Below, piece by piece: positions 3,109 through 24,914 of a stretch of DNA of 43,114 nt. The notes beneath the pieces are model-generated. The model did no database searches. It was not told the DNA's origin and was given only the letters and a program-made list of their open reading frames with translations. Position 1 is the stretch's first letter. Every line of letters starts with the position of its first letter. The stretch is taken from positions 1 through 43,114 of the forward strand of contig WRGF01000213.1 of the NCBI GenBank assembly GCA_009787345.1, written 5' to 3'. Origin of the DNA: Turicibacter sp. GTDB lineage: Bacteria; Bacillota_I; Bacilli_A; MOL361; Turicibacteraceae. The translations under genes and the position numbers were made by a program.

Positions 3109-3678
3109 ATGGGGTACACGCTAGAACAGGTTGAACGTTTAATTAAGGAAATCAATCGGGTGCATGAATGGTTTTCCCGTGAATATTTTGAAATCCATGG
3201 CGGGGAGAAAATCAAGTTGAAACAGACGATTTCTCATATCCCCGAAGCAGCCATTTTTCGCTATCGGCTCCATCTTCATGAGAGCATCAACGATTATTTA
3301 TACAAAACGGATTTGGATGACGTGAAGTATTACTACCGGGTTAAAACTGCTGAATCCCTGGCATATAAAATTGAAAAATTCAAGAACCGCGAGGAAAAAT
3401 ATCCCGTCAACAAGTGGCTAAACGATATTTTTGGTTGCCGGATTATTTTGGATGGGGGATTGATACGAAACCTCTTGGATAACTTGGATAAGTGGGAAGA
3501 ACAGTATGGGCTGAAGAACTGGTACTTTCGGGAGGCAGAGGGCTACCGGGGGATTCATATTTACTTTAAAAGCCAGAGCAATTTCTATTTCCCATGGGAA
3601 CTTCAAATCTGGGACAAGGAAGATGCTGAGAAAAACATCGCCTCCCATCGCTTGCATAAACGAAGTTTTGTGAAATAA
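3109..3678 (+). CDS. Stand-alone RelA/SpoT-domain alarmone synthetase-like protein
   Basis: A 189-residue single-domain protein with the synthetase motifs of the RelA/SpoT nucleotidyltransferase fold. These are RVKTAESLAYK (R77, K79, S83, K87) for ATP binding, NDIFGCR (D106, R111) for the metal, EGYRGIH (Y146, H150) for guanine stacking, and WELQI (E164, Q166) for the catalytic acid. A C-terminal SHRLHK also resembles small alarmone synthetases. No hydrolase, TGS or ACT domain is present. It therefore probably transfers pyrophosphate to a nucleotide (GTP/GDP, or tRNA in toxSAS relatives). It is monocistronic with a terminator directly after it, and no antitoxin partner is evident. It diverges enough from RelP/RelQ that the acceptor is uncertain. 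Confidence 0.85.
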   Translation: MGYTLEQVERLIKEINRVHEWFSREYFEIHGGEKIKLKQTISHIPEAAIFRYRLHLHESINDYLYKTDLDDVKYYYRVKTAESLAYKIEKFKNREEKYPVNKWLNDIFGCRIILDGGLIRNLLDNLDKWEEQYGLKNWYFREAEGYRGIHIYFKSQSNFYFPWELQIWDKEDAEKNIASHRLHKRSFVK

Positions 3679-3816: not shown

Positions 3817-3876
3817 GCACATAGTGAAAATGGAGGTTTGACGCAAAAACGTTAAACCTCCATTTTCACTATGTGC
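3817..3876. repeat. 60-nt near-perfect hairpin
   Basis: A 23-bp perfect inverted repeat (3817-3839 with 3854-3876) extends by four further pairs (GACG/CGTT) to a 27-bp stem with a six-base loop, CAAAAA. No U-tract follows. The stem begins with CACATAGTG, which also occurs as a direct copy at 3795-3803. The 312-bp gap 3687-3998 holds otherwise only the promoter of the next gene. It may be a small non-autonomous mobile element, a protein-binding or processing hairpin, or a bidirectional transcription barrier. Confidence 0.8.
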
Positions 3877-3906: not shown

Positions 3907-3940
3907 TTGACACCACAACTATATCATGTTAAGATATAGT
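3907..3940 (+). promoter_or_regulatory. Promoter with overlapping palindromic operator (PadR/DUF2812 cluster)
   Basis: TTGACA (3907-3912), 17-bp spacer, TAAGAT (3930-3935). An 8-bp inverted repeat ACTATATC (3918-3925) / GATATAGT (3933-3940), separated by 7 bp, covers the spacer and -10 box. This is the position expected for a steric repressor. The adjacent small PadR protein is the likely binder. Confidence 0.65.
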
Positions 3941-3998
3941 CATAACAGATGTATCACCTATGGATATACCTAATTAAATCTCTTCAAGGAGGGACAAG

Positions 3999-4328
3999 AT
4001 GGCAAGAAACGAAGCGATTGAAACCGAGCAGTTGACGGATTCCTTTTATTACATCCTCATTGCGTTGCTGGTTCCCCGTCATGGGTACCTGATTATGAAA
4101 TACATCGAAGAACTAAGCGGCGGCGATTTCGTCATGGGTCCAGCGACCCTTTATACCATTATCAAAAAGTTGCTTAAAGCAGAACTCATCACACCCCATA
4201 GTGAAGTGGACCGAAAAAAAATCTACCTTATCACGGATAAAGGCAGGGAACTGTTGGTTCATGAAGTCAAGCGGCGGGAAAAAATGGTTCGGCACGGTAT
4301 TGAAGCATTGGAAGGAGTGAAGCCATGA
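3999..4328 (+). CDS. PadR family regulator (short form)
   Basis: A 109-residue winged-helix repressor: residues 15-95 carry the PadR core (YYILIALLVPRHGYLIMKYIEEL, then GPATLYTIIKKLLKAELI, then the wing with KKIYLITDKGRELL). It lacks the long C-terminal helices, as is usual for the short PadR forms that sit directly before DUF2812 genes. The ribosome site AAGGAGG is 8 bases upstream of ATG. It overlaps the next gene by 4 bp (ATGA), so regulator and target are coupled. It probably represses its own promoter through the palindrome at 3918-3940. Confidence 0.92.
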   Translation: MARNEAIETEQLTDSFYYILIALLVPRHGYLIMKYIEELSGGDFVMGPATLYTIIKKLLKAELITPHSEVDRKKIYLITDKGRELLVHEVKRREKMVRHGIEALEGVKP

Positions 4329-4999
4329 AAACGACCAAACGTATCTGGTACGATATAATTTCAACTGATGAAAACAAACTGCTTGAACAATGGGCGGAAC
4401 ATGCTAAAAACGGCTGGCTATTGGAATCGGTTTGCATAGGGTATTTCTACGGGAAGTATCGGAAATGTGCAGCCGAAGAAGTGATATTCAGCCGGGACAT
4501 TTTTGAGGGAAGCCCAGAAGAATATCAGGAATATTTGGAGTTTTATGATCAAGCGGGTTGGGAAAAGGTGTGCTCCTTAGGAAAACTCCGGAAACGAAAA
4601 AGCATCTACCCAAGTTTTATAGTCACCATCTTTAAAGCACCTATGGGTACCTTGCCCCTTCACGTAGATAAAGAATCCCAAAATACTCATTTAAATAAAC
4701 AGCTAAAGACATTGAAAATGGGGAGCCGCTTATTAATAGGTTTCAGCACATTGGGGCTGATTATCGAACTTTTGGACAATCGTTTCTCATTTATGGCAAC
4801 ACCTCCAGGTATGATGGCAAGCTACATCTCCATCCTCCTCATCCTTGGCCTTACCTTCTCCCTTCAGGCATGGGCGATGAAACAAAAGCAAGAGGGAAAA
4901 GCCGACGGCATACTGCAATTAAAATGGTTCAATATTTTATCAACCCTCCTCCCCCTTGCCATCATGGGCCTTGTCCAATATTTCACCCTTTGGAGGTAA
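4325..4999 (+). CDS. DUF2812 domain membrane protein, paralogue 1
   Basis: A 224-residue protein. Residues 1-125 are the soluble DUF2812 domain: a WAEHAKNGW helix, an acidic EYQEYLEFYDQAGWEKVCSL segment, and IFKAPMGTLPLHVD ending the domain. About three hydrophobic segments follow (near 137-155, 163-183 and 203-221), so the domain is probably cytoplasmic and membrane-tethered. DUF2812 proteins are known mainly by their habit of following PadR regulators, and their function is unknown. It is coupled to the PadR gene by a 4-bp overlap and is followed four bases later by a second DUF2812 gene. Paralogues here share the NGW, EYxEYLExxxxxGW and FKAPxGTxPL signatures. Confidence 0.88.
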   Translation: MKTTKRIWYDIISTDENKLLEQWAEHAKNGWLLESVCIGYFYGKYRKCAAEEVIFSRDIFEGSPEEYQEYLEFYDQAGWEKVCSLGKLRKRKSIYPSFIVTIFKAPMGTLPLHVDKESQNTHLNKQLKTLKMGSRLLIGFSTLGLIIELLDNRFSFMATPPGMMASYISILLILGLTFSLQAWAMKQKQEGKADGILQLKWFNILSTLLPLAIMGLVQYFTLWR

Positions 5000-5003
5000 C
5001 CAT

Positions 5004-5654
5004 ATGAAAAAAGCTACCAAAACCCTCAAAAACAACGGCTTCGCCTGGAGCAGCCACGAGGATATGGAAAAACTGGCCCAAGAAGCCGAAAATGGCTGGC
5101 ATTTAACAGGATTCACCTGGGGCGGCTTTGCCTACAAACTGGAAAAAGGGGCTCCCGAACAACTCGCCTACAGCTTGGACTGCTACCGCGGGACGAAGGG
5201 GGAATATGCTGAATACCTTGAATTGTTTGAAATGTCAGGATGGAAAAAAGCCTGTACCTTAGGAAGTGGAAGTGCGGGCACCTACACCATTTTCAAGGCG
5301 CCCAAGGGAACGCCCCCACTTTACAGCGACTCCACAACCTTGGCGGAAAATTACCACTATCAGGGAAAAACACTCCTAACTTCCGGAATCGCCCTGGTTA
5401 TTCTTGGTATCTTTTTCTTTATCCTAATTCCCATCATCCGGGAACGGGGAATCGACCACGAAATCAGGGTGCTCTTATCAGGAGTCGGTGGAGGTTTCAT
5501 CGGCGCAGGCGCCATGTTGCTGGTAGGTTGCACCATCATGCACCTTCGGGCAAAAAAATCCAACACCGCCTTCCTAAAAACGAAACTATTTTGGATAGCC
5601 ATTTACCTGATTATTGCTGTATTGACTGGTATGCTCGCCATTGCCATTCTATAA
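5004..5654 (+). CDS. DUF2812 domain membrane protein, paralogue 2
   Basis: 216 residues from ATG 5004, chosen over an upstream in-frame start at 4956 because GGAGGT at 4992-4997 is correctly spaced and the extra residues lie inside the previous gene. The soluble part (1-115) has EAENGWHL, EYAEYLELFEMSGW and IFKAPKGTPPLYSD, matching DUF2812. Three membrane helices follow (about 123-147, 158-180, 193-215). It is directly downstream of paralogue 1 and in the same operon. Immediately after its stop lies a short hydrophobic ORF that looks frame-damaged. Confidence 0.88.
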   Translation: MKKATKTLKNNGFAWSSHEDMEKLAQEAENGWHLTGFTWGGFAYKLEKGAPEQLAYSLDCYRGTKGEYAEYLELFEMSGWKKACTLGSGSAGTYTIFKAPKGTPPLYSDSTTLAENYHYQGKTLLTSGIALVILGIFFFILIPIIRERGIDHEIRVLLSGVGGGFIGAGAMLLVGCTIMHLRAKKSNTAFLKTKLFWIAIYLIIAVLTGMLAIAIL

Positions 5655-5672
5655 ACTTTTTGGGGAATCACC

Positions 5673-5781
5673 ATGGAAATCAAACTCATTCATCCGCACA
5701 TTGAAGCCAGCCCTCAACTGGGTCATCGGACTATCGGTAGCGTTGGTAGTGGTTATCGTATTATTAATCGGCTTAAGTTAG
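5673..5781 (+). pseudogene. Small single-helix membrane ORF, apparently frameshifted
   Basis: A GGGGA ribosome site precedes ATG 5673, but the frame of that ATG simply runs through into the next gene. In the +1 frame, bases 5674-5778 encode a coherent short protein that has a basic start and then one membrane helix (WVIGLSVALVVVIVLLIGL), stopping at TAG 5779-5781. The two facts fit a roughly 35-residue membrane protein whose start was separated from its body by one base near 5674-5680. A sequencing error, a real frameshift, or a pure accident of composition remain possible. Confidence 0.4.
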
Positions 5782-5807
5782 CAAAAAAAACGAAAGGAGG
5801 TTCGAAC

Positions 5808-6374
5808 ATGAAAACAGAAAAAAAACTCCCGCTAGGGGATTGGATTCACAACGATGAAAAAGAGCTGGAAAAGTTCGCCGATTGGGCCCGTGAAGGATGG
5901 ATTTTACAGGCAACGGGCATGCCCTACCACCCCTATAAATTGGTCAAAGGCGAGCCCCAAAACTTAGTGTATGCGGTTGATTATTTTACCGATAAGCGGG
6001 AGAATTATGCTGAATACCTTAGGTTATTTGAAGCGGGAGGATGGAAACTGGTGGTCCGTACCGAAGCCCCATGGGAACTTTTCAACAAGTCATTATGTAT
6101 TTTCAGTGCCATTGATGGCACTCCGCCCATTTATACAGACAAAACCACCAAAGCCGAAATTTATGGATTCCGAAAGAAAAAATCATTGAAATTCTTCTAT
6201 TATTACACGGTATTGGCAATCCTTAGCAGCACCGTAGAATTAACGCAACTTATGAGGGGCGATTTCGGCATTCGAAACATCCTTTGGGTACTGGCTTGGT
6301 GGATTCCAGTCGCATATAACACCTACAAATTCTTCTACCTAAGGCATCAAGAACGCAAGTTCTGCTTAAATTGA
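5808..6374 (+). CDS. DUF2812 domain membrane protein, paralogue 3
   Basis: 188 residues from ATG 5808, which has AAAGGAGG seven bases upstream; the longer frame from 5673 is rejected because its extra residues look non-coding. The DUF2812 domain fills 1-120: WAREGWIL, NYAEYLRLFEAGGWKLV, and a FSAIDGTPPIYTD variant of the closing motif. Only two hydrophobic segments follow (about 124-146 and 158-180), making it the shortest of the three paralogues. It sits in the same presumed operon between paralogue 2 and the M28 peptidase gene. Confidence 0.88.
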   Translation: MKTEKKLPLGDWIHNDEKELEKFADWAREGWILQATGMPYHPYKLVKGEPQNLVYAVDYFTDKRENYAEYLRLFEAGGWKLVVRTEAPWELFNKSLCIFSAIDGTPPIYTDKTTKAEIYGFRKKKSLKFFYYYTVLAILSSTVELTQLMRGDFGIRNILWVLAWWIPVAYNTYKFFYLRHQERKFCLN

Positions 6375-6402
6375 TAAATCGTCGATAAAAAGGGGGAAAA
6401 TC

Positions 6403-7332
6403 ATGAGAGAGAGCATTCAGGAACTTCTAGGTTCCTATCAAATCCGCAAGACAAAAAAGCAAAAGCAAGCATTTATCCAGTGGTTGGAAAATCATGCAAC
6501 CAAGCATGGATACGAAATTAAAAAAGATGATTATAGCCAGGACGGAACCAACTTAATCGTGGGAAATCCCCGTGAAGCCAGCCTATATTTGACTGCCCAC
6601 TACGATACTCCCGCCAATTTATTCATTCCTATCATTGCAGGGCTCAACCCGCTTGGGTTTGCACTATCACAGCTTTATCTAGTTGCCATCATGTACTTTC
6701 CCTTACTGATTTTGGTATGGGGGATTGGCCTCCTGAACATTGACCCTATGATTATTGCTCTGGTTCAGGCAGTGATGTTCTTCGGTTATAGCCTGTCCCT
6801 GCTTCATTTCGTAGATAAGGTTCCCAATAAAAACAATGCCAACGACAATACGTCGGGAGTGTCTGTTCTTTTGGCTCTCCTTGAAGATTTAAAGCCAGGC
6901 GAGCGGGCGGAAATATGCTTTGTTTTCTTCGATGAAGAGGAAAAGGGATTAGTAGGCTCCCAAGCTTTCAAGAAAAACTATAAGGTGAAAAATACACCAT
7001 TGATTAATTTCGACTGCGTGGCAAACGGTGAACATCTCGTATTCGTTGCAAAAAAATCCTTTCGGGAATCTGCTCTTGGGCGCTACTTCATAGAAAACAA
7101 AAACCAGTACCCAAGACTAAACATCGTCAATGCCAGCACGAACATTTATGCCTCCGACCAGATTATCTTTAAAAATAGCTTAGGGGTAGCCAGTAAAAAG
7201 AAAGCCCCCATTTTTGGTTATTACTTCGACCGTATCCATTCCCACAGGGACACCATCTTCGACAACCAAAACATCGAGGATTTAAACGTAATGATGAAAG
7301 ATTTACTAGCGAACGTTTCAAACAATGACTAG
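6403..7332 (+). CDS. M28 family metallopeptidase with membrane insert
   Basis: A 309-residue zinc aminopeptidase-like protein. Metal ligands of the M28 family are visible: H66 and D68 in TAHYDTP, D148 in NANDNTSG (bridging), E178/E179 in FFDEEEKGLVGS (general base and ligand), D204 in NFDCV, and a late His in RIHSHRDT. Between the first two motifs, residues 75-138 form an insertion of two to three hydrophobic helices, so the enzyme is probably anchored with its catalytic halves on one side of the membrane. Family members remove N-terminal residues from peptides. Placed between DUF2812 proteins and an ABC exporter, it might process or degrade a peptide handled by this cluster (inference). Confidence 0.88.
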   Translation: MRESIQELLGSYQIRKTKKQKQAFIQWLENHATKHGYEIKKDDYSQDGTNLIVGNPREASLYLTAHYDTPANLFIPIIAGLNPLGFALSQLYLVAIMYFPLLILVWGIGLLNIDPMIIALVQAVMFFGYSLSLLHFVDKVPNKNNANDNTSGVSVLLALLEDLKPGERAEICFVFFDEEEKGLVGSQAFKKNYKVKNTPLINFDCVANGEHLVFVAKKSFRESALGRYFIENKNQYPRLNIVNASTNIYASDQIIFKNSLGVASKKKAPIFGYYFDRIHSHRDTIFDNQNIEDLNVMMKDLLANVSNND

Positions 7333-7371
7333 AGGGAGCAAAAAATCTGAAGGTGGAGTGGAGGGATTACG

Positions 7372-7713
7372 ATGAAAGTGAAAATAAGAAAGTGGCTGAG
7401 TGTGGAAGAAAGCCATGAAGAAACCCAAACGCCTAAGGAAAAGCCATCAGGCTGGGACCTTCTCATAATGGGACTAGTTTTCGGGGTGGCAACAGGGCTT
7501 AATAGCGGGCCTGTTCACTGGGGAACGCTTATTGGGATGATTCCTATTACGTTTGTGGGAGTGATTTTGGGGCGAATCTTCCATATCAAACCCACTGCTT
7601 TATGGAAAGGCAATTGGAAACTATTCATTGCATGTGTCGCATTATTCATTATGGGTACAAGTATAATCACCAGAATTGCGGCTTTCTTTGACGGTTTGTT
7701 TGGGTTTTCTTAA
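7372..7713 (+). CDS. Small integral membrane protein
   Basis: A 113-residue protein of unknown family. A charged 28-residue N-terminus (KESHEETQTPKEKP-like) precedes three hydrophobic segments (about 28-46, 50-68 and 82-108) with Gly-rich packing. There is no cleavable signal or enzymatic motif. A GGAGGGA ribosome site precedes ATG 7372. It lies in the same orientation 39 bases after the M28 peptidase gene and 35 bases before the next gene, with no terminator on either side, so it belongs to the PadR/DUF2812 cluster. Confidence 0.75.
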   Translation: MKVKIRKWLSVEESHEETQTPKEKPSGWDLLIMGLVFGVATGLNSGPVHWGTLIGMIPITFVGVILGRIFHIKPTALWKGNWKLFIACVALFIMGTSIITRIAAFFDGLFGFS

Positions 7714-7748
7714 CAAGTTCAGCATTACAAGGTAGAAGGAGGTTCACT

Positions 7749-8081
7749 ATGAAAAAACATAAAGGCTTCATCGTGGTAATAGCCCTGGCAATTTTAGCAT
7801 ATTTGGGATATTTCATCACTCATATTAATTATAATCCCGGTCCAGGACACGAGCTGACTCTGGAAGGCTTACAGGCAACTATTTTAGAAGTCCATGATGG
7901 ATGGGTAATGGTTGAAACGGCAGGGCAAAATGCGGAGCGGATAACCTTTAATACCCAACACTTGCCTGAACTTTCTATCCAAGTGGGAGACGTTATCGTC
8001 ATTGAGTTTGACGGCATCATTTTAGAAAGTGACCCAGCCCAAATCCGTGCATCGAATTGGCATTTGGTCGAAGAAAATTAA
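7749..8081 (+). CDS. Membrane-anchored small beta protein (YobA/DUF3221-like)
   Basis: A 110-residue protein with an N-terminal membrane anchor (residues 5-25, FIVVIALAILAYLGYFI) and an extracytoplasmic domain. The domain reads as a small beta barrel: ATILEVHDGWVMVET, then a VGDVIVIEFDG strand pair, then an Asp/Pro-rich end, a pattern like DUF3221 (YobA) proteins. It lacks the lipobox Cys that many of those have. A strong AGAAGGAGG ribosome site precedes ATG. It is part of the same directional cluster. A 9-bp hairpin (8089-8110) without a U-tract separates it from the ABC transporter genes and might tune their expression. Function is unknown. Confidence 0.7.
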   Translation: MKKHKGFIVVIALAILAYLGYFITHINYNPGPGHELTLEGLQATILEVHDGWVMVETAGQNAERITFNTQHLPELSIQVGDVIVIEFDGIILESDPAQIRASNWHLVEEN

Positions 8082-8136
8082 CCAACGTCAACCGTCCTAA
8101 GGGATGGTTGAATCCACCAAGAAAGAGGGGAAACCT

Positions 8137-9018
8137 ATGTTAAGCATCCAACAGTTAAGCAAGCAGTTTGAATCCCAAATGGCAGTGAACCAGCTATCAT
8201 TTGAGGTGGGCAAGGGGCAGGTGTTTGGGCTCCTTGGGCGAAATGGTGCGGGAAAATCCACCACAATAAAAATGATTTTGGGGCTGGTAAAGCCCAGTGG
8301 TGGGGAGATTACTTGGAACGGGGTTCCCATCGAGCAGGCGAACGTCCGCATTGGCTACTTGCCTGAAGAACGGGGGCTTTATACCAAGAGCAAGGTGGGG
8401 GATATGCTCACTTACTTTGGCAAATTGGAAGGAATGGGCACCAAGGAAGTAGGGACGGCTATCGACTATTGGCTGAATCGCCTTGAAATCCCAGAGTACA
8501 AAACCAAGTTGGTGGCGGATTTATCCAAAGGGAACCAGCAAAAAATCCAGTTGATTGCCACCCTCCTCCATGACCCGGAACTGGTTATTTTGGACGAGCC
8601 TTTCAGTGGGCTAGACCCTGTGAACTCCCAAGTCTTTGCTATCATCATCGAAGAGGAAATCGCCAAAGGAAAAACAGTCATCATGTCCAGTCACCGCATG
8701 GACATGGTGGAGGCTTTCGTGGAGGAAGTCACCCTTTTAAAACAAGGGAATGCCATGGTGTCAGGAAGCCTTCAGGCGATTAAAGATAGCTACCAGACCC
8801 GCAATTTAATCCTAGGTGCAAGTGCGCCTGTCACTGAACATTTCAAACAACAGGGGATTGATTTTAGCATAGACAAGCAAAACGTCTTGGTGAAAGTTGC
8901 TGATGATTCGGTTGGTTTGAATGTCCTTAATGGGCTGGCGAAAGCGGGTATCCGGGTGCCGGAATTTAAGCTCTTGCAACCCACATTGGAAGAAATCTTT
9001 ATCGAGAGGGTAGGATAA
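8137..9018 (+). CDS. ABC transporter ATP-binding protein (NatA/YhaQ-like)
   Basis: 293 residues from ATG 8137, preferred to an in-frame upstream GTG/ATG because GAGGGGAAACCT is correctly placed. All nucleotide-binding motifs are present: Walker A GRNGAGKST (34-42), signature LSKGNQQ, Walker B with LVILDEPFSGLDP, and the switch His in SSHRMD. The C-terminal 75 residues match the DUF4162 tail of drug/sodium-export ATPases such as YhaQ. It powers the membrane partner encoded one base downstream. It is the eighth real gene of the PadR-led cluster, so the exporter may be induced together with the DUF2812 proteins. Confidence 0.93.
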   Translation: MLSIQQLSKQFESQMAVNQLSFEVGKGQVFGLLGRNGAGKSTTIKMILGLVKPSGGEITWNGVPIEQANVRIGYLPEERGLYTKSKVGDMLTYFGKLEGMGTKEVGTAIDYWLNRLEIPEYKTKLVADLSKGNQQKIQLIATLLHDPELVILDEPFSGLDPVNSQVFAIIIEEEIAKGKTVIMSSHRMDMVEAFVEEVTLLKQGNAMVSGSLQAIKDSYQTRNLILGASAPVTEHFKQQGIDFSIDKQNVLVKVADDSVGLNVLNGLAKAGIRVPEFKLLQPTLEEIFIERVG

Positions 9019-9019
9019 C

Positions 9020-10228
9020 ATGAGAAAATTCGGACTGGTATTTTGGTTTCATTTCAAGGAGAGCATTACAGGCAAAAAGGCACTTATATCAGGATTGGTG
9101 CTATTCGTCATCTCCCTCGGCTTCTTCGGGGCTACCCATTGGTTTTCCCAACAGGAAGGGGAGCAATACCTCATGGCGGTCGTCCAGGATTCCGGAGCCT
9201 TCGTGGTGGATTTAAACACCCTAAACAGCGTGAGCCCTGACATCGGGTTTGAAGCCCTAGGTCTTGAAGAGGCAAGGCAGTCACTGGAATCCGGCGAGGT
9301 GGATACGGTGTTCGTCATTGAAGGGGAGGAGATCCCCACCCTCAAAACCCTGTCAGAGCGGGGGAGCCATTCCACGGCGGAATTTATCGTGACCCAGGAA
9401 CTTTCCCATCAGTATTTGGCACGGGTGATGGAGCAAGAGGACATTAGCCCCGAACTCCTGCAAAGCCTGTTGAGCCCCGTGGCGGTCACCCATGAAACCT
9501 TTGAAAACATGGAAGAATTTTTCCTGAATTTTGCTATCTCTTGGGTCGTTGGAATGGCGCTTTATATGGTCGTTGCAACTTCGGGGACCATGATTGGCAC
9601 GTCGGTCATGAACGAAAAGGCTTCAAGGGTCATGGAAGTCATGATTTCCAAAGTAAGGCCCACCACCATAATGTATGCGAAAATCCTGTCCAACCTGGCC
9701 TCTGTCATGGTGACTTCCCTCATGTTATATGTCGGTTACTTGGCAGCCAGCGTCTTGGGCTGGGCGGATATGGAGCAGCTTGCCTTCTTCGGCGGGGCGG
9801 TGGACTTTGCCAGTGTAGACCCTATGATTTGGGTGCTGGCAGTCGCGTACTTTATTTTAGGCTACCTCGTTTATGGGATGTTCTTCGCCATGGCGGGTGC
9901 CCTGTGCACAAAGGTGGAGGATTACCAAAGCGTCGCGGCCCCTATCACCATTTCCCTGATGATTCCATTCTTCGCCATGATGTGGGGGCTGACTGACGGG
10001 ATTTTCGGGTCCATCGCTACCTACATCCCCTTATTCTCACCATTCATTACTTTCAGCCGCTTCGCAGATGGGACGGCAGGCTACACAGAAGTAGGGATTA
10101 CTTTGGTGCTTCTGCTAATTTCCATCCTATTGATTGGAAAGCTGGCGACGAAAATCTACACCGGCGGGGTCATGCATTATAGCGAAAAAGCTAGTTTCAA
10201 GGACATCCGCAAGCTATTGAAAGGCTAG
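9020..10228 (+). CDS. ABC-2 type permease (NatB/YhaP-like)
   Basis: A 402-residue integral membrane protein: one N-terminal helix (about 20-42), a 130-residue extracytoplasmic domain, then five or six helices from about residue 173. The mid-protein segment with MNEKASRVMEVMIS is the cytoplasmic coupling helix signature of the NatB/YhaP group. It starts one base after the ATPase stop, so the pair forms one transporter. Known relatives export sodium ions, drugs or peptides, and sequence alone does not give the substrate. A strong terminator at 10289-10325 closes the cluster. Confidence 0.92.
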   Translation: MRKFGLVFWFHFKESITGKKALISGLVLFVISLGFFGATHWFSQQEGEQYLMAVVQDSGAFVVDLNTLNSVSPDIGFEALGLEEARQSLESGEVDTVFVIEGEEIPTLKTLSERGSHSTAEFIVTQELSHQYLARVMEQEDISPELLQSLLSPVAVTHETFENMEEFFLNFAISWVVGMALYMVVATSGTMIGTSVMNEKASRVMEVMISKVRPTTIMYAKILSNLASVMVTSLMLYVGYLAASVLGWADMEQLAFFGGAVDFASVDPMIWVLAVAYFILGYLVYGMFFAMAGALCTKVEDYQSVAAPITISLMIPFFAMMWGLTDGIFGSIATYIPLFSPFITFSRFADGTAGYTEVGITLVLLLISILLIGKLATKIYTGGVMHYSEKASFKDIRKLLKG

Positions 10229-10288: not shown

Positions 10289-10325
10289 AAAAGGCTGGCT
10301 CGGGAATTCCCAAGCCAGCTTTTTT
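10289..10325 (+). terminator. Terminator of the PadR/DUF2812/ABC cluster
   Basis: GC-rich stem GCTGGCTCGGG / CCCAAGCCAGC with one mismatch, a four-base AATT loop and a TTTTTT tail. The TATAAT of the next gene's promoter (10330-10335) lies only a few bases beyond, so terminator and promoter are nearly fused. Confidence 0.88.
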
Positions 10326-17743: not shown

Positions 17744-17820
<77 letters not shown>

Positions 17821-17826
17821 TACAAT

Positions 17827-17902
17827 GGTCCAGTGGTGTAGCGGTTAACATGCCTGCCTGTCACGCAGGAGATCGCGGGTTCGATCCCCGTCTGGACCGC
17901 CA
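17827..17902 (+). tRNA. tRNA-Asp (GTC)
   Basis: 76 nt with encoded CCA. Acceptor stem GGTCCAG/CTGGACC, anticodon GTC at 17860-17862 in a normal seven-base loop, and T-arm GGTTCGATCCC. Confidence 0.97.
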
Positions 17903-17907
17903 TTTTA

Positions 17908-17983
17908 GGCCTCATAGCTCAGTCGGTAGAGCAAAGGACTGAAAATCCTTGTGTCGGCGGTTCAAGTCCGTCTGAGGCCACCA
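17908..17983 (+). tRNA. tRNA-Phe (GAA)
   Basis: 76 nt with encoded CCA. Acceptor stem GGCCTCA/TGAGGCC; anticodon GAA at 17941-17943 inside AAGGA-CTGAAAA-TCCTT; T-arm GGTTCAAGTCC. Confidence 0.97.
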
Positions 17984-18006
17984 TAAAGAGCTTTTTTTAT
18001 TCATAT

Positions 18007-18081
<75 letters not shown>

Positions 18082-18085
18082 ACGT

Positions 18086-18161
18086 GGCCCGTTGGTGAAA
18101 CGGTTAACACACCTGCCTTTCACGCAGGCATTCACGGGTTCGAACCCCGTACGGGTCACCA
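18086..18161 (+). tRNA. tRNA-Glu (TTC)
   Basis: 76 nt with encoded CCA. Acceptor stem GGCCCGT/ACGGGTC with one G-T pair, anticodon TTC at 18119-18121, T-arm GGTTCGAACCC. It is the last tRNA of the cluster. Confidence 0.97.
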
Positions 18162-23109: not shown

Positions 23110-24498
23110 TTAACCTAAAACGAATTGAAGGACGAAGAATGCTGCCAGGATGACCGTTGAAAGTTTGATTTCTTTCATGCGGCCTGTCAATAATTTGATG
23201 ACGACGTAAGAGATAAGCCCGAATGACGTCCCGTTAGCGATGGAAGCAGTCATTGGCATGATAGCGATCGTAAGGAATGCCGGCAAGCTTTCCGTGATTT
23301 CAGAGAAGTCAACTTCTTTGATGTGGGAAACCATCAAGCAACCTACGAAAATAAGGGCAGGCGCAGTTGCTACGACTGGGATCAAGCTGACAAATGGGGC
23401 AAGGAAGATGATCCCTAAGAACATAACCCCTGTCACCAATGAAGTAAGCCCTGTACGTCCGCCTTCGGCAATACCGGCAGCAGAAGATACTGTCGTCGCA
23501 GTAGATGAAGAACCGAACAGGGCACCCACAGCAGTCCCTAAGGCATCAACCGTCATTCCGCGCTGAAGGCCAATTACTTCGCCATTTTCATCAACCATAT
23601 CATTAGCAGAAGCAATTCCGTAGATAGTCCCCAGTGCATCAAGCAAGTTGACTAGCAAGAACGTGAATCCCATGGTAATCAAAGAACCAAGGGCCGCCCC
23701 GCGGATACCGGCGAAGTTGCTGAAGTCAAGCTGTAGGAAAGACACATCCATGAAGTCCTGGATGATGGCGCCTGGGTTCGTGCTGAACGTATCAGGGATC
23801 GTAGAATGCCCAGTGATGTAAGCTAAAACCGTTGTTGCCAAAATCCCAATCAGGATGCTACCTTTGACTTTTTTAGAGAAAAGGACAACCATGATGACAA
23901 GCCCGATAAGAGCCAAGACAGCCCCTTTGACAGCTGTCGTATTTTCAGAGAAATTCCCAAAATTAATTAAGGAAACAAAAGTTCCCGGATTGGCAACGAC
24001 AACGCCTGACTGGCGAAGGCCAAGGGATGTCATGAACAACCCGATACCGGAACCTAGGGCAATTTTAATGTTTTTCGGCACCCCTTCAATGATGAACTGG
24101 CGCACGCCACCGATGGATGTGGCAACGAAGGCAAGCCCTGAAACAAATACCAAGGCAAGTGCCATCTGGTATTGCTCGACGGGTGACATGTCCGGGTTTC
24201 CGGCAAGCAGCGCAAGGGCTGGCATGGCAGTAAAGGCGAAGAAAGAACCAAGCCCCATCCCAGGTACCTGAACGAATGGCAGGTTGGCGATGAAAGCTTT
24301 CATCAATGACCCGGCAGCGGCACTCAATACGGCGGCGATAAATACACCGTTCATCAAGCGGGTGTATCCCTGACCGATCATCCCTGGGATTGTCAAGATA
24401 GCGAATACGGATGAGAAAAAGATGGTTATCCCGGCCATGACCTCTGTGCGTACCGTCGTCTTATGGGCTTTTAACTTAAACATTTTTTCAAAGTTCAC
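23110..24498 (-). CDS. NCS2 family guanine/hypoxanthine permease
   Basis: 462 residues, starting at GTG 24496-24498 with TAGGAGGA 7-8 bases upstream. The AzgA/PbuG subgroup of NCS2 is recognised by the start KAHKTTVRTEVMAGITIFFSS and by PGMGLGSFFAFT (helix 3 region). GLQRGMTVDALGTAVGALFGSS and AGIAEGGRTGLTS mark the substrate-binding re-entrant helices. About 14 membrane segments are expected. It imports hypoxanthine and guanine with protons. The purine riboswitch in its leader supports that assignment and predicts shut-off when guanine is plentiful. Confidence 0.94.
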   Translation of the reverse strand: MNFEKMFKLKAHKTTVRTEVMAGITIFFSSVFAILTIPGMIGQGYTRLMNGVFIAAVLSAAAGSLMKAFIANLPFVQVPGMGLGSFFAFTAMPALALLAGNPDMSPVEQYQMALALVFVSGLAFVATSIGGVRQFIIEGVPKNIKIALGSGIGLFMTSLGLRQSGVVVANPGTFVSLINFGNFSENTTAVKGAVLALIGLVIMVVLFSKKVKGSILIGILATTVLAYITGHSTIPDTFSTNPGAIIQDFMDVSFLQLDFSNFAGIRGAALGSLITMGFTFLLVNLLDALGTIYGIASANDMVDENGEVIGLQRGMTVDALGTAVGALFGSSSTATTVSSAAGIAEGGRTGLTSLVTGVMFLGIIFLAPFVSLIPVVATAPALIFVGCLMVSHIKEVDFSEITESLPAFLTIAIMPMTASIANGTSFGLISYVVIKLLTGRMKEIKLSTVILAAFFVLQFVLG

Positions 24499-24555: not shown

Positions 24556-24683
24556 TTAAAAAAATGCAACGTCCCCTTTGGCAGGATGCTAAAAGAAATG
24601 GCATTGTTTGAAATGTGCATCCGTAGTCTGCCATTTAAGGTGGCAGGTAGAAACTTCGAACCATATTATCGAAATATACGAAT
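24556..24683 (-). promoter_or_regulatory. Purine (guanine-class) riboswitch upstream of the NCS2 permease
   Basis: On the minus strand, 24683-24619 folds as a purine aptamer. P1 is seven pairs (ATTCGTA/TACGGAT), and the conserved core includes ATATGG, GTTTCTACC, the TTAAAT loop and GACTAC. The discriminating base in GACTA is C, which pairs with guanine or hypoxanthine (adenine switches have T there). Downstream at about 24586-24556 is an imperfect GC-rich hairpin (GCATCC...GGACGTTGC) followed by seven Ts, consistent with a transcription-terminating expression platform. The rest of the 476-bp gap (24684-24914) shows nothing clear. Confidence 0.92.
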
Positions 24684-24914
24684 GAAATGCATAATGTACC
24701 GTTATTTTACAGCAAAAACCGCCAAAATTCAACAGAAAAAGGGAAGAAAAATGTAAAAAATACACGCGGTTTTCATATGAATTTTAAGCATGTTAAGATA
24801 CGGCCTGTATTTTGAGGGGTTAGCGAAAATAAAATGCAAGATTTCACGGAAATTAAAGAGGAAGGCAGGAGCGGGAGGGTAGGATTTTGACAAAACCAAA
24901 GTGAGCTTCTTTAC

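What the first reader, a model, noticed from the sequence alone, without database searches (positions are those of the whole stretch)
3907..10228. PadR-led cluster: three DUF2812 membrane paralogues, a membrane M28 peptidase and an ABC exporter
Seen: regulator, DUF2812 x3, M28 peptidase with helices inserted between its metal motifs, two small membrane proteins and a NatA/NatB-like exporter run on one strand, with overlaps or gaps of 1-153 bp and no terminator until 10289. Known: PadR genes often precede DUF2812 genes, whose function is unknown. Inference: this could be an induced membrane-stress or peptide-handling module in which DUF2812 proteins sense or bind a compound, the peptidase trims it and the exporter removes it. 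It is my main candidate for an undescribed system.
Basis: partly seen in the sequence, partly recalled or inferred. Interest (0 to 1): 0.72.

Follow-up and report, generated by a model that had tools for sequence, protein, structure and literature searches.

The report
PadR-DUF2812 membrane-response operon with exporter
This is a self-regulated bacterial operon in which a repressor (PadR) is tied to a membrane protein family of unknown function (DUF2812), an exporter and a membrane peptidase; the repressor-DUF2812 pair and its DNA control site recur across Bacillota, whereas the full gene set was found only here.

Summary
In detail: PadR, three DUF2812 proteins, an M28 peptidase with an inserted membrane hairpin, two small membrane proteins and a NatAB-like exporter lie on one strand from one promoter to one terminator.

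The proposed system is only partly right. M28 is a local addition: 0 of 80 related M28 loci outside the window carry DUF2812. The second M28 gene and second PadR-DUF2812 pair of this genome stand apart from each other and from any such exporter.

The conserved core is the PadR-DUF2812 dyad: 84 distinct pairs, 82 of them overlapping or at most 15 bp apart. It has its own operator, TATATC-N7-GATATA, often repeated every 15 bp. Two copies sit on this operon's promoter. Searching about 400 other genomes with the operator alone led to a PadR-DUF2812 pair at 26 of 30 sites read.

An ABC exporter follows the pair in most Vagococcaceae and at two other loci. The ATPase tree says these linkages arose independently of the one here.

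Best reading: an autorepressed PadR whose membrane partner is DUF2812, a tandem-repeat domain with no solved fold match, inducing an exporter against membrane-active compounds. The regulatory part is well supported; sensing and substrate are inferred. It is a new variant of a known kind (PadR-resistance and HAAS-PadR units).

The parts
3907..3935 (+). sigma-70 type promoter TTGACA-N17-TAAGAT with TG before the -10
3920..3938 (.). operator 1, TATATC-ATGTTAA-GATATA (12/12), covering the spacer and the -10
   Evidence: same motif upstream of 23 of 29 PadR-DUF2812 dyads
3950..3968 (.). operator 2, TGTATC-ACCTATG-GATATA (11/12), 30 bp from operator 1 (two 15-bp periods); a degenerate site (9/12 by reading) lies between them at 3935-3953
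3999..4328 (+). PadR family repressor, 109 aa
   Evidence: Pfam PF03551 50.7 bits; PadR-like solved structures match by sequence
4325..4999 (+). DUF2812 membrane protein 1, 224 aa, start codon overlapping the padR stop codon (ATGA)
   Evidence: PF11193 49.4 bits; overlap
5004..5654 (+). DUF2812 membrane protein 2, 216 aa: N-terminal (beta-alpha-beta-beta)x2 domain and three membrane helices
   Evidence: PF11193 70.6 bits; AlphaFold2
5808..6374 (+). DUF2812 membrane protein 3, 188 aa
   Evidence: PF11193 68.9 bits
6403..7332 (+). M28 peptidase with a membrane hairpin between its first and second metal motifs, 309 aa
   Evidence: PF04389 66.2 bits; alignments A1 and A3
7372..7713 (+). small membrane protein, 113 aa, no family
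   Evidence: one marginal match in 100 relatives
7749..8081 (+). small protein with one N-terminal membrane anchor and an outside domain, 110 aa; only a sub-threshold DUF3221 match
8137..9018 (+). ABC exporter ATPase (DrrA/NatA type)
   Evidence: PF00005, PF13732; 57% identical to a stand-alone exporter ATPase of the same family, G001
9020..10228 (+). ABC exporter permease (NatB-like, ABC2_membrane_3)
   Evidence: PF12698 118.6 bits
10289..10324 (+). intrinsic terminator closing the operon
   Evidence: inverted repeat I2 followed by a T-run

Best explanation
An autorepressed stress operon. PadR binds paired TATATC-N7-GATATA sites on its own promoter and silences the whole transcript. DUF2812 is PadR's translationally coupled membrane partner: a cytoplasmic domain made of two beta-alpha-beta-beta repeats, tethered by two to three membrane helices. 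When a lipophilic or membrane-active compound, or the resulting membrane disturbance, is present, DUF2812 and/or PadR register it, PadR leaves the promoter, and more DUF2812 plus the NatAB-type exporter are made; the exporter removes the compound. In this lineage DUF2812 was multiplied and an M28 membrane peptidase and two small membrane proteins were added. Shown by sequence: gene order, a single promoter and terminator, the operator, dyad conservation, repeated independent exporter linkage. Inferred: repression, the sensing role of DUF2812, the substrate, and peptidase action in the same response.
For: PadR directly precedes DUF2812 in 84 distinct pairs, 82 overlapping or within 15 bp. The operator has at least 10 of 12 matches in 23 of 29 dyads against 1.85 in shuffles. 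Perfect TATATCG-N5-CGATATA sites in 296 class genomes: 13, of which 8 are at PadR-DUF2812. Operator-only scan of 399 other genomes: 26 of 30 loci read are PadR-DUF2812, in 13 sequence clusters. The window promoter carries the only perfect operator in the genome, plus a second site, and no internal operator. Exporter linkage: Vagococcaceae 13 of 15, L315, L045 and the window; the ATPase and DUF2812 trees keep the window apart from Vagococcaceae. Most dyad PadRs, this one included, lack a Trp in the C-terminal helix (17 of 85 have one), the residue implicated in drug recognition in LmrR-type PadRs (PMC5050560). Precedents: PadR-membrane protein operon BC4206-4207 induced by enterocin AS-48, with BC4207 giving resistance (PMC2774856); LftR-LieAB (PMC4517056).
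Against: No expression, binding or phenotype data. Most dyads have no exporter, so DUF2812 must have a role without one. The window exporter's nearest relative stands alone, so its place here could be incidental. The membrane-active signal rests on analogy with other PadR operons.
Confidence: 0.5

Rival explanations
1. DUF2812 is the effector, not the sensor: an induced membrane-protecting protein (as BC4207 appears to be), with PadR sensing the compound itself; exporter and peptidase are further effectors.
For: BC4207 overexpression alone raised AS-48 resistance in B. cereus and B. subtilis (PMC2774856). Most dyads have no other gene in the operon, so DUF2812 is the only output available. Gene multiplication here would suit a dose-dependent effector.
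Against: Translational coupling to padR in nearly every genome fits a partner of PadR at least as well. Whether BC4207 is a DUF2812 protein was not tested. Most dyad PadRs lack a C-terminal-helix Trp.
Confidence: 0.3
2. The operon is a chance run: a PadR-DUF2812 dyad that happens to lie upstream of unrelated membrane genes, co-transcribed without a shared function.
For: M28 and DUF2812 never co-locate elsewhere. The exporter ortholog stands alone in G001, and related exporters stand alone in other relatives. The small membrane proteins are close to unique to this genome (for the first; the second was not searched separately).
Against: Short gaps, no internal terminator or strong promoter, and repeated independent pairing of such dyads with ABC exporters.
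Confidence: 0.25
3. One reading: a peptide-handling system in which the M28 enzyme trims a peptide that DUF2812 binds and the exporter removes.
For: Intact metal site and membrane hairpin; all genes in one operon.
Against: No conserved DUF2812-M28 association in 80 related M28 loci from public genome contigs or in those found across the phylum. Of 39 genomes with this M28, 20 also hold DUF2812, but elsewhere.
Confidence: 0.08

Closest known systems
HAAS-PadR dyad (PMC11237479)
   Same: PadR with a neighbouring, often membrane-anchored partner protein, proposed as an alternative to two-component systems
   Different: DUF2812 has no HAAS/DUF1700/DUF1048 match and a predicted (beta-alpha-beta-beta)x2 domain, not three helices
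BC4206-BC4207 of Bacillus cereus (PMC2774856, PMC3506622)
   Same: PadR-first operon with a membrane protein, induced by a membrane-active bacteriocin and giving resistance
   Different: two genes only, no exporter or peptidase; described operator is a degenerate ATGT/ACAT motif; whether BC4207 is DUF2812 was not tested
Listeria LftR-LftS / LieAB and LltR operon (PMC4517056, PMC6624303)
   Same: PadR repressor with a small partner (LftS) or membrane protein (Lmo0600), and a drug-type ABC transporter under its control
   Different: lieAB lies at a separate locus; the membrane partner Lmo0600 is DUF1700; no TATATC-N7-GATATA operator reported in the passages read
LmrR-LmrCD of Lactococcus lactis (described in PMC3506622, PMC5050560)
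   Same: PadR-s2 repressor controlling an ABC drug exporter
   Different: no DUF2812; operator ATGT/ACAT; drug sensed by PadR itself through a C-terminal-helix Trp
NatAB / DrrAB type ABC-2 exporters
   Same: ATPase with the DrrA C-terminal domain and an ABC2_membrane_3 permease
   Different: below the cut-off of every NCBIfam model listed; substrate unknown

Membership tests
PadR family regulator | PadR winged-helix domain above the curated cut-off | tested here: met
   50.7 bits against 27
PadR family regulator | ATGT-N8-ACAT operator | tested here: not met
   the shared site is TATATC-N7-GATATA in 23 of 29 dyads; published motif
DUF2812 (PF11193) | domain above the curated cut-off | tested here: met
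   49.4, 70.6 and 68.9 bits against 27.8
HAAS-PadR dyad | partner carries a HAAS (DUF1700/DUF1048/DUF1129) three-helix domain | tested here: not met
   no Pfam match; predicted alpha/beta fold
HAAS-PadR dyad | stand-alone PadR gene always next to the partner gene | tested here: inconclusive
   84 adjacent pairs, but a minority of DUF2812 genes have no PadR neighbour detected
M28 metallopeptidase | two-metal ligand set and catalytic Glu | tested here: met
   H66, D148, E179/E180, D204, H279 invariant in A3
M28 metallopeptidase | peptidase activity | not testable with these tools
   needs purified protein
NatAB/DrrAB ABC exporter | ABC ATPase with DrrA C-terminal domain plus ABC2_membrane_3 permease | tested here: met
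NatAB/DrrAB ABC exporter | a named equivalog or subfamily (e.g. DrrA, GldA) at its cut-off | tested here: not met
   TIGR01188 171.9 against 312.45; TIGR03522 171.6 against 402.6
GyrI-like (double SHS2) ligand-binding domain | structural match to a GyrI-like fold | tested here: not met
   no PDB match at E<=0.001 and no GyrI-like entry among the 50 listed, despite a similar order of elements
Known anti-phage defence system | PADLOC match beyond generic ABC ATPase similarity | tested here: not met
   only the ATPase matches, generically

The most novel reading that the evidence does not exclude
PadR-DUF2812 is a distinct membrane-signalling dyad of Bacillota, separate from HAAS-PadR: DUF2812, a tandem beta-alpha-beta-beta repeat domain without a solved fold match, anchored in the membrane, binds PadR and controls its hold on a dedicated operator array (TATATC-N7-GATATA every 15 bp), and lineages independently hang exporters, and here a membrane peptidase, on this switch.
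Probability: 0.35. Interest if true: 0.7.

Novelty: new variant of a known kind. Interest (0 to 1): 0.5.

Why it matters
Only two papers in a 5.39-million-paper library mention DUF2812, each once, although the family recurs in Bacilli and Clostridia. Tying it to PadR by a shared operator, coupled translation and repeated exporter recruitment turns an orphan membrane family into a testable regulatory switch, gives a DNA motif that finds it genome-wide, and suggests where to look for inducers.

Tried and rejected
GyrI-like/double-SHS2 fold for DUF2812: suggested by element order, not supported by Foldseek. Kinship with DUF4177: weak (E 0.005 for one half-domain, below cut-off), kept only as a lead. 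A conserved M28-DUF2812 pair: searched in the own genome, relatives, phylum and 80 loci from public genome contigs, none found. A common origin of the window and Vagococcaceae exporter linkage: not supported by the ATPase tree. Defence system: no PADLOC support. Plasmid and phage copies: no M28 on plasmids; dyads on Priestia and Niallia plasmids, without an exporter in the annotated Priestia record; nothing in phages. No same-genus genome was available, so conservation of the full operon within the genus could not be tested.

Full report
OBSERVATION. The gene run is as described. PadR (3999-4328) overlaps the first DUF2812 gene by four bases (ATGA), followed by two more DUF2812 genes, an M28 peptidase, two small membrane proteins, an ABC ATPase and a permease, most with a Shine-Dalgarno-like sequence. 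Domain scores exceed the Pfam cut-offs. A TTGACA-N17-TAAGAT promoter lies at 3907-3935 and a hairpin with a T-run at 10289-10324. The M28 metal residues are intact, and a membrane hairpin separates H66/D68 from D148.

WHAT IS CONSERVED. Within the same genome there is a second PadR-DUF2812 pair without exporter or peptidase (C73) and a second, 44% identical M28 gene away from both (C167). In same-family genomes PadR-DUF2812 stands alone in G003, and the exporter stands alone in G001. Across the class, PadR directly precedes DUF2812 in most loci. Over all loci gathered there are 84 distinct adjacent pairs, 82 of them overlapping or within 15 bp. By contrast, M28 proteins of this hairpin type are widespread in Clostridia and other groups, but none of 80 such loci has DUF2812 within the fetched flanks, usually 6 kb, nor do those found across the phylum within about 1.5 kb. 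Of 39 of those genomes, 20 do hold DUF2812, at other places.

THE OPERATOR. The 8-bp dyad seen in the window promoter matches palindromes upstream of other dyads. TATATC-N7-GATATA with at least 10 of 12 matches occurs upstream of 23 of 29 dyads against 1.85 expected in shuffles. Many promoters carry two to five sites, often at a 15-bp period. The window has a perfect site over the spacer and -10, and a second site 30 bp further. The genome has no other perfect site; its three further one-mismatch sites show no PadR or DUF2812 gene among the ORFs read there. In 296 class genomes the strict form TATATCG-N5-CGATATA occurs in 13, 8 of them at PadR-DUF2812. A scan of 399 genomes of the class of a Vagococcus genome with an extended operator and no protein information gave 30 loci to read, of which 26 have PadR-DUF2812 (one, L297, with DUF2812 found and PadR hidden by a longer opposite frame), in 13 clusters at 60% identity. 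This differs from the ATGT/ACAT motif described for PadR and LmrR and from the cdPadR1 motif. Among papers of the library that hold both PadR and TATATC or GATATATC, none appears to describe it, judging by titles and by the passages opened.

THE EXPORTER LINK. In Vagococcaceae 13 of 15 D2-like loci read PadR-DUF2812-ATPase, with the start of a membrane protein following in most of the short loci and a NatB-like permease in the locus read in full (L269), with operator sites in most. L315 and L045 also have an ABC gene after the dyad, L045 with a different exporter type. The window ATPase groups with the stand-alone exporter of G001 (57% identity, support 95/92), not with Vagococcaceae (41-44%). 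DUF2812 proteins of the window and of Vagococcaceae also fall in separate groups. Exporters thus seem to have been recruited to these dyads more than once. Still, most dyads have none: among the class dyads read for downstream genes, one had an ABC gene next.

DUF2812. AlphaFold2 gives the soluble domain high confidence (mean pLDDT 89.5) with the order beta-alpha-beta-beta twice, followed in the full protein by three membrane helices. The two halves align with each other profile to profile in local mode (P 1.3e-6, probability 91%; the global alignment was weaker), each with a conserved Gly-Trp after its helix, so the domain looks like an internal duplication. No solved structure matches at E<=0.001; small DUF4177/DUF1737-like viral domains match one half weakly. 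In D2 the loop between helices 2 and 3 carries five Lys/Arg and no acids, which by the positive-inside rule puts the N-terminal domain in the cytoplasm, where it could meet PadR. This is inference.

MECHANISM. See Best explanation. The regulatory anatomy is well supported by sequence. That DUF2812 rather than PadR registers the signal rests on coupling, topology and the lack of a C-terminal-helix Trp in most of these PadRs, set against the LmrR-type proteins in which that Trp is implicated in drug recognition. The rival, DUF2812 as protective effector, has a real precedent in BC4207.

PLACE AMONG KNOWN THINGS. It works like PadR-resistance operons and like the HAAS-PadR dyad, but it fails the HAAS domain test, and its operator differs from those published. 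I file it as a new variant of a known kind.

Noticed in passing
window 3817-3876: 27-bp near-perfect inverted repeat just upstream of the operon promoter; a second copy (94% identical) lies at C180:15537-15600 between tatD-like and metG-like genes, so it is a small dispersed intergenic element.
   Followed up: partly
window 5641-5781: Open frame ending in a strongly hydrophobic 20-residue stretch between the second and third DUF2812 genes, with no clear start; may be a small membrane peptide or a remnant.
   Followed up: partly
window 3109-3678: Small RelA/SpoT-like protein, below the Pfam cut-off (24.2 against 27 bits), just upstream of the operon.
   Followed up: partly
window 24604-24701: Purine riboswitch on the minus strand upstream of a xanthine/uracil permease gene (23110-24498).
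   Followed up: partly
window 17744-18161: Cluster of five tRNA genes (Ile, Asp, Phe, Met, Glu).
   Followed up: no
L099, L101-L103: Stand-alone NatAB-like exporters in relatives; G001-G006 each have one permease match, so it may be a family housekeeping exporter.
   Followed up: partly
L134 (Priestia megaterium plasmid) and L135 (Niallia taxi plasmid): PadR-DUF2812 dyads with three to four operator sites on plasmids, suggesting mobility.
   Followed up: partly
L136-L215: M28 peptidases with the same membrane hairpin are a widespread subfamily in Clostridia; their partners were not studied.
   Followed up: partly
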